From Bacteroidales bacterium (lineage in GTDB: Bacteria; Bacteroidota; Bacteroidia; Bacteroidales; UBA932): a stretch of 34,705 bases of DNA. Below, one piece after another: positions 15,188-20,808 of the stretch (position 1 is the stretch's first letter; every line of letters begins with the position of its first letter). The notes beneath the pieces are model-generated. The model made no database searches. It was not told where the DNA came from and worked only from the letters and a program-made list of their open reading frames with translations. Location of the stretch: the NCBI GenBank assembly GCA_017962025.1, contig JAGCWD010000062.1, forward strand, positions 1-34,705, given 5' to 3'. Both the position numbers and the translations under genes were made by a program.

Positions 15188-16303
15188 TTAAACGTTTGTC
15201 CAATGTATCCTTATTCCGTCTTTCTCCATGCCCCGGAACCAGGTCATCTGCCTTTTGGCGAACTGGTGGATTGCATTTCCAAGAAGGAGACGCATCTCTT
15301 CGTAGGACAGGATGCCCAGAACATGCTGGGTGACGAATTTGTACTCAAGTCCGTAGTACATCAGGTCCTCGGGCTTTATTCCACTCTTCAGCAAGTCCTT
15401 GACTTCTTCTATAAGTCCATTATGAAGCCTTGAGTCAAGCCTCGAGTCAATCCGCGCATTCCTCTCTTCCCGGTCCACCAGAGTGCCGATGAAATAGGGC
15501 TTTTTGGGAAGGAAAGATGTCTTTTGTACAGGGTGGTCTTTCTCGTATAGGGCGACTTCAAGAGCCCTGATCACGCGCCTTTTGCTCTGCATGACTCCTT
15601 CATCGGGGAGGGGCCCCAGTTCAGCGAGTTTTTCACGCAGATCTTCAATGTCGTACAACTCCAGTTCAGCACGGAGTTCCTCATTAGGAGGCACCTGGGG
15701 CAATGAATATCCGCTCGTGGCCGCCTGGATGTAGAGACCGGTGCCGCCACACAGGATGGGAATCCTTCCGCGTGAGCGGATGTCCTGGTAGGCTTCTTCG
15801 AAGGCCTGCTGCCACTGGTACAGGTCAAACCTCGTTCCAGCGGGTACTATGTCGATCAGGTGATATGGAACCCCTCCGTACTCCTCCAAATCCTTCCCCG
15901 TCCCTATGTCCATACCCCTGTAAACCTGTCTGCTGTCCGCTGACAGAATCTCTGCTACGGCTCCTGAGGGAGGTGTCCCCTCCGACAACGCCTCGCTTCG
16001 CTCGGCCCCACCGCTCGCTTCACTTCGTTCCGCTCCGGTCCCCCCTCTTACGTGGCCGAGGGTGGCCACGGTTGCTGAGGGGACACCTCCCTCAGGAGAC
16101 ATAGCAGAAAACTTTCGGGCCAGTTCGACGGCGTAGCGGGTTTTCCCGGAGGCGGTGGGCCCGAGGACGACTATAAGGTCGATGGAGCCGGAAACATATT
16201 CATTGAAGATGGACTGTACGTCGATTGTCTCCGGATCCGGCATGGGTGCCGGCGGAGGAATGGGGATAGCTTCCCGAAGTTTGTTCTGAGGCTTCCTGCC
16301 CAT
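15188..16303 (-). CDS. miaA: tRNA dimethylallyltransferase with a ~50-residue in-frame insertion
   Basis: MiaA adds a dimethylallyl group to A37 of tRNAs that read UNN codons. I use the ATG at 16303, one nucleotide beyond the smpB stop, giving 371 residues; the frame runs further upstream but only into smpB sequence. The P-loop GPTASGKT is at 48-55, EILSADSRQVYRGMDIGTGK at about 118-137, and the C-terminal region has GLEYKFVTQHVLG and AKRQMTWFRG, as in the family. Residues about 68-117 are an extra segment rich in Gly, Ser, Glu and Ala with two GAERSEA repeats, encoded by an inverted-repeat element (see 15951-16108). The normal protein would join KFSA directly to EILSADSR. A proline-rich N-terminal extension of about 40 residues is also unusual; M21 could be an alternative start. 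Confidence 0.92.
   Translation of the reverse strand: MGRKPQNKLREAIPIPPPAPMPDPETIDVQSIFNEYVSGSIDLIVVLGPTASGKTRYAVELARKFSAMSPEGGVPSATVATLGHVRGGTGAERSEASGGAERSEALSEGTPPSGAVAEILSADSRQVYRGMDIGTGKDLEEYGGVPYHLIDIVPAGTRFDLYQWQQAFEEAYQDIRSRGRIPILCGGTGLYIQAATSGYSLPQVPPNEELRAELELYDIEDLREKLAELGPLPDEGVMQSKRRVIRALEVALYEKDHPVQKTSFLPKKPYFIGTLVDREERNARIDSRLDSRLHNGLIEEVKDLLKSGIKPEDLMYYGLEYKFVTQHVLGILSYEEMRLLLGNAIHQFAKRQMTWFRGMEKDGIRIHWTNV
15951..16108. repeat. Palindromic element inserted in frame within miaA
   Basis: The ends form a 32-bp inverted repeat, 15951-15982 against 16077-16108, with 30 of 32 positions matching and the inner 22 bp perfect (15961-15982 and 16077-16098; core GGGAGGTGTCCCC). The interior contains a 7-bp hairpin (CGTGGCC / GGCCACG, 16051-16070) and repeats of CGCTTCG-like sequence. 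On the miaA strand it is open and contributes about 50 codons (150 bp) without disturbing the frame. The unit is MITE-like in form and recalls the coding palindromic elements of Rickettsia. No second copy is present in this window. Confidence 0.85.
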
Positions 16304-19790: not shown

Positions 19791-19896
19791 CTGTTATGTA
19801 AGTATCTTATCTCTAGAAAGTTAAATAATCAGACGGTCTCGATTTCGGGACCGTCTGATTATGTAATTAACTGGTAATATGTTACTTACATAACAG
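19791..19896. repeat. 106-bp palindromic element, copy 1
   Basis: The element has 13-bp inverted ends (CTGTTATGTAAGT at 19791-19803 and ACTTACATAACAG at 19884-19896), a 26-nt arm on each side and a 28-nt core hairpin at 19830-19857 (CAGACGGTC ... GACCGTCTG). The arms are partly complementary (17 of 26), so the whole unit can fold as one long hairpin. It lies 31 nt after the M16 stop and 30 nt before the RAYT stop, where it could also end transcription from both sides. Confidence 0.85.
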
Positions 19897-19926: not shown

Positions 19927-20808
19927 TTATCCTCTATGTAGAAACTTGTTTATACACGAGGATTTAGCATGAGTCTGGTTCTTAAGTGTCCAGAAGAGTC
20001 TATCCTTTGATTCTTCTGACAGTTTCTCGAAATTGAGGCTTGATCCTTTATAGCCGAAAGATTTTACAATTGAAAGCATTTCAAGGTAGCATGAGTGATC
20101 ACCGTATTCATCTTCGAGATCGAATTCCGATCCAGCATTCGATTCAACAGCTGTGATCATTTTCCCGAAACCGTCGTACAATTCTTCCAGATCCTTGAAT
20201 GCAAGGAAGTTGTACTTGAAGATAATGTAGTCGATAAGTTGATTGCTCTCATCTTTGTCAAGGCCATTGAACAGGTTCTTTAATACATTATATGATAAGT
20301 GTTTCCCTTCGTTGTAGAAATAATCGACTTTTCTTAAAGCGACTCTCATCACATTCCTGCAGTGTTCTTTCCTGAGTTTTTTTGAAAATGGGTGGGGATT
20401 GTCATGATATGCCAGGAGATTCCATCTGTATTCCATAGCGGTTCTGACCATCTTGCCGGCTACTGCATTGTTGAACACATAAGCCACGCAGCCCATGATG
20501 ATCTTTACCCCTTTCTTCAATGAATACCCGAAAGGGCTTTGGAATAATGACCCTTTCCTTTCATATCGAGTATTATATTCCCTTACGAAAGCAGTGGTTA
20601 TCCGATGTATAAAAGAACGTAATTCACTTAAAGAAATCTCCTTGAATAGAAAATGAATATGGTTGAACATCGGGCAGAATGCCAGGACGGTCAATTCCAT
20701 TCTACGTACGATAACGCTTACGAGAGTGAAGAAAACAAGCAGATCTTCCAGCCTGTAAAAAATACCGAAGCCATTGATCCCTTTGATGAATGCATGCCTT
20801 GCTTCCAT
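19927..20808 (-). CDS. REP-associated tyrosine transposase (RAYT, Y1/IS200-like)
   Basis: A 293-residue Y1 transposase. Family landmarks are RHAFIKGINGFGIFYRLEDLLVF at the N-terminus, the HUH motif H50-I-H52 in FCPMFNHIHFLF, the RKGSLFQSPFGYS segment, and Y110 in CVAYVFNNAVAGKM, the counterpart of the YIHxNPV tyrosine that cleaves DNA. All catalytic parts look intact, so the enzyme may be active. A C-terminal extension of about 150 residues follows, ending in a helix-rich stretch that may be a degenerate DNA-binding domain. RAYTs process short palindromes; here two 106-bp palindromic elements flank the gene. No convincing -7 box was found upstream. Confidence 0.9.
   Translation of the reverse strand: MEARHAFIKGINGFGIFYRLEDLLVFFTLVSVIVRRMELTVLAFCPMFNHIHFLFKEISLSELRSFIHRITTAFVREYNTRYERKGSLFQSPFGYSLKKGVKIIMGCVAYVFNNAVAGKMVRTAMEYRWNLLAYHDNPHPFSKKLRKEHCRNVMRVALRKVDYFYNEGKHLSYNVLKNLFNGLDKDESNQLIDYIIFKYNFLAFKDLEELYDGFGKMITAVESNAGSEFDLEDEYGDHSCYLEMLSIVKSFGYKGSSLNFEKLSEESKDRLFWTLKNQTHAKSSCINKFLHRG

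What the first reader, a model, noticed from the sequence alone, without database searches (positions are those of the whole stretch)
15951..16108. Palindromic element exapted into the miaA coding sequence
A ~158-bp unit with 32-bp inverted ends (30/32 matching, inner 22 perfect) lies inside miaA between the P-loop helix and SADSRQVY. On the coding strand it is open and adds about 50 residues with GAERSEA repeats, while both flanking motifs of the enzyme stay in frame. This resembles the Rickettsia palindromic elements that insert in genes without killing them, but in a Bacteroidales essential-type tRNA modification gene. The element may be a MITE family that has an open frame by selection, or the mRNA hairpin may affect miaA and purE expression.
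Basis: partly seen in the sequence, partly recalled or inferred. Interest (0 to 1): 0.78.

Follow-up and report, generated by a model that had tools for sequence, protein, structure and literature searches.

The report
In-frame palindromic mobile element family
A short DNA hairpin element has spread through a group of gut Bacteroidales, often in frame inside conserved genes such as miaA, and its folded centre can lie in either orientation at the same place in sister species.

Summary
Confirmed and extended. The 158-bp inverted-repeat unit in miaA is one copy of a dispersed family: 16 distinct copies in this genome by BLAST, 28 places by covariance model. The core pattern occurs in 33 of 121 genomes of the genus and, of 295 sampled across the order, only in the window's own.

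Anatomy: a conserved core (pseudoknot plus two hairpins) is closed by ~26-bp arms that mostly differ between loci but pair by compensatory change (95.4% of cells paired, 0 of 500 shuffles).

57 of 78 copies flanked by long ORFs are in frame and open. 28 of 30 ORFs read through an element hit Pfam families, among them PolA, FtsK, IspH, E2 and PurD. In MiaA the insert lies in the turn after the P-loop helix.

New: among ortholog pairs the core has opposite orientation as often as the same (34 against 35) while arms stay paired. Empty sites at four loci lack both arms, so arms arrive with the element.

It works like Rickettsia palindromic elements. Inferred: template switching between arms keeps them paired and inverts the core. 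The mobilising enzyme is unknown; no structure prediction completed.

The parts
15188..16303 (-). miaA (tRNA dimethylallyltransferase), 371 codons, host gene of the element
15951..16108 (-). the palindromic element, in frame; core strand = miaA coding strand
16077..16108 (-). 5' arm (core sense)
15951..15982 (-). 3' arm (core sense), 30/32 complementary to the 5' arm
16052..16069 (-). core hairpin P2 (GTGGCC-ACCCTC-GGCCAC)
16043..16047 (-). GAGGG, proposed pseudoknot partner of the P2 loop
   Evidence: pairs 33-37 with 54-58
16010..16039 (-). core hairpin P3 (variable between copies)
15990..16006 (-). core hairpin P4, long form seen in 56 of 57 in-frame copies

Best explanation
A non-autonomous, mobile-type palindromic element of one Bacteroidales genus. 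SHOWN: a dispersed family; a conserved folded core inside long self-complementary arms; presence, arms included, at sites that relatives have empty; in-frame open copies in many conserved genes including miaA; orthologous copies in either orientation; arms that differ between loci and sister species yet stay paired. INFERRED: (1) an unknown enzyme recognises the folded strand and inserts copies; (2) selection removes insertions that break genes and leaves those in tolerant turns and linkers and in certain reading frames; (3) after insertion, replication template switching between the arms makes them copy each other and inverts the core, and exchange with other copies swaps core hairpins. In MiaA the ~51 extra residues are probably a tolerated, mostly neutral loop.
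For: Dispersed copies. Structure: 754 cells changed on both sides against 225 in shuffles; sliding partners drops pairing from 95.4% to 33-51%. Polarity: one extra base on the right arm 18-20 nt from the core in 53 of 145 copies, on the left in 0. In frame: 57 of 78; Pfam hits for 28 of 30 ORFs, at least 16 of them with listed matches on both sides of the insert or spanning it. The favoured forward frame is open in 37 of 38 forward genic, 18 of 19 reverse genic and 24 of 42 intergenic copies. Empty sites without either arm at four loci. Orientation 35 same, 34 opposite, including a flip with an identical core (L087/L089). Template switching is published to homogenise repeat arms and invert the spacer in yeast genes (PMC8604942, abstract).
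Against: No transposition was observed, no mobilising enzyme was found, and the only target-duplication candidate is one CTAG (L221 against L185). The extra base always stays on the right arm, so switching at random points of the arms is not enough. At 85% flank identity or more, flipped pairs have less similar cores than unflipped ones (0.81 against 0.93, p 0.0016), which fits replacement as well as inversion; below 85% there is no difference (0.85 against 0.83). 21 of the 78 gene-flanked copies were out of frame or had a stop, some of them perhaps chance ORFs. Element-bearing genomes have Y1 transposase matches in 28 of 33 against 61 of 88 others, p 0.11.
Confidence: 0.75

Rival explanations
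1. A programmed intragenic inverton: a dedicated recombinase flips the core between the arms to give two protein versions.
For: Orientation differs between orthologs in about half of the pairs; genic copies are open in the favoured frames of both strands in most cases (35 of 38 forward copies also open in the reverse frame, 18 of 19 reverse copies in the forward frame). The asymmetric mark moves with the core in the E2 gene.
Against: The repeats differ from locus to locus, whereas invertases bind motifs within the repeats (PMC11892184, passage). The core itself often changes with the flip. Copies also lie between genes. No recombinase link was tested.
Confidence: 0.12
2. A structured RNA or cis-regulatory element under selection at RNA level, with the coding insertions incidental.
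For: Strong covariation and pseudoknot; hairpins fold well.
Against: No Rfam family above its gathering score in 261 bases around the element (best chance hit mir-942 at 22 bits against 100). Arms show few wobbles and no clear G-T over A-C bias (43 against 32 of 1994 pairs, p 0.25). Most gene-flanked copies are in frame, and both orientations occur at the same site.
Confidence: 0.1
3. An ancient MiaA domain.
For: L020 (partly), L087, L089 and L142 keep element sequence at the same miaA site.
Against: 15 of 17 genus members read lack it and the same core lies in unrelated genes.
Confidence: 0.01

Closest known systems
Rickettsia palindromic elements (RPE)
   Same: Palindromic, 105-146 bp in the review seen, dispersed between and within genes, in-frame fusions in conserved genes (passages of PMC2229807 and PMC10969869)
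   Different: Different lineage; here the arms are locus-specific and co-vary, the core has a pseudoknot, and orthologs occur in both orientations; sequences were not compared with RPE
[quoted passage not shown]
   Same: Small, non-coding for a transposase, inverted-repeat ends
   Different: No shared terminal repeat sequence, GC-rich, target duplication and related transposase not shown
REP elements with RAYT / Y1 transposases
   Same: Imperfect hairpin with strand polarity; Y1 genes are common in the genus (89 of 121)
   Different: Larger, arms not conserved in sequence; association with Y1 not significant
Invertons, including intragenic ones
   Same: Short inverted repeats flank a segment found in both orientations, in genes too
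   Different: Here the segment is conserved and the repeats vary; no invertase known. Intragenic inversions (Nature 2024) were seen only as a reference in PMC11892184
Integron attC sites (recalled)
   Same: Variable arm sequence, conserved folded strand with an extrahelical base giving polarity
   Different: Different order of parts as recalled; no integrase link tested

Membership tests
Rickettsia palindromic elements | Dispersed ~100-150 bp palindrome in intergenic and coding places | tested here: met
Rickettsia palindromic elements | In-frame insertion in unrelated conserved genes | tested here: met
   57 of 78
Rickettsia palindromic elements | Sequence homology to an RPE family | not tested
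   no RPE sequence was fetched
MITE | Terminal inverted repeats shared between copies | tested here: not met
   arms differ between most loci; exception: 13 G016 copies with similar arms
MITE | Target site duplication | tested here: inconclusive
   one CTAG candidate among 28 comparisons
MITE | Related autonomous transposon | tested here: inconclusive
   no core enclosing a gene in the loci scanned; whole genomes not scanned for it
REP/RAYT | Mobilised by a Y1 transposase | tested here: inconclusive
   28 of 33 against 61 of 88, p 0.11
Inverton | Segment found in both orientations | tested here: met
   between species only: 35 same, 34 opposite
Inverton | Conserved recombinase motif in the repeats | tested here: not met
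   arm sequences are locus-specific; structure rather than sequence is shared
Inverton | Switching within a population | not testable with these tools
   one assembly per species
Rfam RNA families | Match above gathering score | tested here: not met

The most novel reading that the evidence does not exclude
A mobile element recognised as a folded single strand rather than by sequence: its pseudoknotted core and an extrahelical base on one arm are kept while arm sequence is free to change, so it can enter conserved genes, encode a soluble linker on both strands, and flip in place without breaking them.
Probability: 0.35. Interest if true: 0.87.

Novelty: new variant of a known kind. Interest (0 to 1): 0.72.

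Why it matters
In-frame palindromes in housekeeping genes are best known from Rickettsia; four searches of the held open-access library listed no such description for Bacteroidales, which does not exclude one elsewhere. Here many sister species give filled, empty, inverted and decayed copies of the same insertions. That makes three open questions testable: how such elements move, how their arms stay complementary, and how conserved proteins accept ~40-50 foreign residues, in two versions.

Tried and rejected
Inverted duplication of target sequence as the source of the arms: suggested by sites in relatives that keep only right-arm sequence (L150/L191 against L172, L106 against L177, L163 against L117). 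Rejected because four sites are clean of both arms (L234 and L132 against L169; L227 against L248 and L249; L205 against L252 and L262; L228 against L255), and several partial sites (L241/L256, L218/L260, L106/L177) include bits of the core, so they look like deletion scars. Some of the 28 comparisons were ambiguous or poorly aligned (for example L225, L106 against L176, L084, L068) and I draw nothing from them.

RNA-level selection from wobble excess: not supported. Larger copies enclosing a gene: six cores lacked the right-hand core motif nearby; they looked like point variants or truncated copies. Phage, plasmid and viral carriers: no match. Y1 transposase link: not significant. The open-frame table numbers frames differently from its phase table; one search compares the frames genes use. 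An early note of mine names purH for L006; its scanned ORF had no Pfam hit, so I do not use it. Structure of MiaA with the insert: not obtained.

Full report
OBSERVATION. Read on the miaA coding strand the unit folds far better than its shuffles (z -8.3). MiaA still passes its family cut-offs, though the matched stretches start after the insert. Against solved MiaA the extra ~51 residues fall between the end of the P-loop helix region and the next conserved strand, where the solved chain has residues 32 and 34.

A DISPERSED FAMILY. BLAST of the unit gave 18 places in this genome, two of them the arms matching each other, so 16 distinct copies. A covariance model built from these 16 found 28 places here, 34 in G017, 30 in G016, 2 in G111 and none in G013 and G095. 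With up to 3 mismatches six genomes had 18, 17, 24, 29, 24 and 16 matches; the reversed-pattern control had 0. With up to 2 mismatches 33 of 121 genomes sampled from the genus were positive and 1 of 295 sampled from the order, the window's own. The pattern undercounts: G016 is negative by pattern and positive by model. G036 and G017 show identical match coordinates, as do G032 and G070, so I take each pair as one genome.

ANATOMY. On 108 aligned copies, orthologs included, the structure I name has 95.4% of cells paired and 754 cells changed on both sides (shuffles 225, 0 of 500 as high); sliding the partners by one to three columns drops pairing to 33-51%. The alignment was fitted to a related model, which leans towards the structure. 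All ten outer arm pairs tested have changes on both sides. The P2 loop CCCTC pairs with a later GAGGG (pseudoknot), with both sides changed in 6 cells, among them three with G-C for U-A. P3 and P4 often end in a C-GNA-G triloop: 78 of 142 and 100 of 145 folded hairpins, of 147 copies. d(GCGAAGC) is known as an unusually stable DNA hairpin (recalled, no call). Arms share a profile: a short inner stem, an internal loop 8-10 nt from the core, and one extra base on the right arm at 18-20 nt in 53 of 145 copies, never on the left. Arms of different loci are otherwise mostly unlike, except for shared inner parts in some subfamilies and 13 G016 copies with similar arms.

IN GENES. Of 120 distinct copies with context, 78 have at least 60 open codons on both sides; 57 are same-frame and open, 7 same-frame with a stop, 14 out of frame; 42 are intergenic or unclear. 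Orthologs are included, so these are not independent. I scanned 30 of the 35 ORFs that one search found open through an element: 28 hit Pfam, including DNA polymerase I, FtsK, LytB/IspH, ribosomal RNA adenine dimethylase, TrmO, QueH, PurD, E2 acyltransferase, GH3 and TldD; L004 and L006 had no hit. In at least 16 of the 28 the listed matches lie on both sides of the insert or span it. Forward copies use one frame in 35 of 38 cases and reverse copies one in 14 of 19. That forward frame is open in 37 of 38 forward genic, 18 of 19 reverse genic and 24 of 42 intergenic copies (first against last p 1.3e-5). The short P4 form occurs in 1 of 57 genic and 22 of 42 intergenic copies (p 1.6e-9).

MIAA IN RELATIVES. 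In 17 of the 19 genus members searched (G016 and G005 were not read) the linker could be read: G000 has the full element, G017 keeps its right half next to other sequence, G006 has a different insert of about 45 residues, and the rest have linkers without the core. Named relatives L087 and L142 carry it in the same orientation as here and L089 in the opposite one.

EMPTY SITES, DECAY AND ORIENTATION. Joined-flank searches and one-gap alignment (28 comparisons) gave empty sites lacking both arms at four loci, and partial sites that look like deletion remnants. Among 158 copies, 69 ortholog pairs with both flanks matched split 35 same to 34 opposite orientation; at 93% flank identity or more, 4 to 6. 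Pairs overlap in members. At 85% identity or more, flipped pairs have less similar cores (0.81 against 0.93, 16 pairs each, p 0.0016); below that, 0.85 against 0.83. L087/L089 is a flip with an identical core. In the E2 gene the flip keeps the outer arm ends and moves the asymmetric mark with the core.

MECHANISM. Arrival as a unit and filtering for tolerable frames follow from these data. Template switching between arms would explain homogenised arms plus inversion, as reported for yeast genes (PMC8604942, abstract). Core replacement and the one-sided extra base need more: exchange with other copies, or a structure-specific enzyme that keeps polarity. No enzyme was identified; a Y1 transposase match lies in the window, but the genus-wide association is not significant.

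COMPARISON. It behaves like Rickettsia palindromic elements (passages of PMC2229807 and PMC10969869). I do not file it as one, because sequence homology was not tested. It fails the shared-terminal-repeat criterion of MITEs and the conserved-motif criterion of invertons. Coding palindromes of another kind, not dispersed elements as far as the abstract tells, are known in Nematomorpha mitochondria (PMC6649704, abstract).

Noticed in passing
window 19927-20808 (-): A 293-aa ORF beside metK matches the Y1 transposase family over its cut-off (25.7 against 23 bits); Y1 matches occur in 89 of 121 genus members.
   Followed up: partly
L020, L142 and L034 miaA: The same MiaA turn carries other inserted sequence: a ~120-bp stretch is shared by L142 and L020 in opposite orientation, and L034 (G006) has a different insert rich in hairpins. 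The turn looks like an insertion hot spot.
   Followed up: no
A3 rows L034, L036-L040, L043-L047: Eleven MiaA sequences from the genus lack about 40-60 residues in the middle of the protein (columns ~239-300) that the window protein has.
   Followed up: no
L290, L293, L302, L303, L306-L310, L312-L315 (G016): Thirteen copies share arms and parts of their flanks, a younger-looking expansion in a nearly complete genome (8 contigs).
   Followed up: partly
L221 against L185: Possible 4-bp target duplication CTAG at an insertion; palindromic, so ambiguous.
   Followed up: no
L231 and L194 (E2 gene): The element is open and in frame in both orientations in the E2 acyltransferase linker of sister species (frame of the flipped copy read by eye).
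   Followed up: partly
window 19791-19896: A separate 52-nt, 81% complementary inverted repeat with a 2-nt loop downstream of the 969-aa ORF.
   Followed up: no
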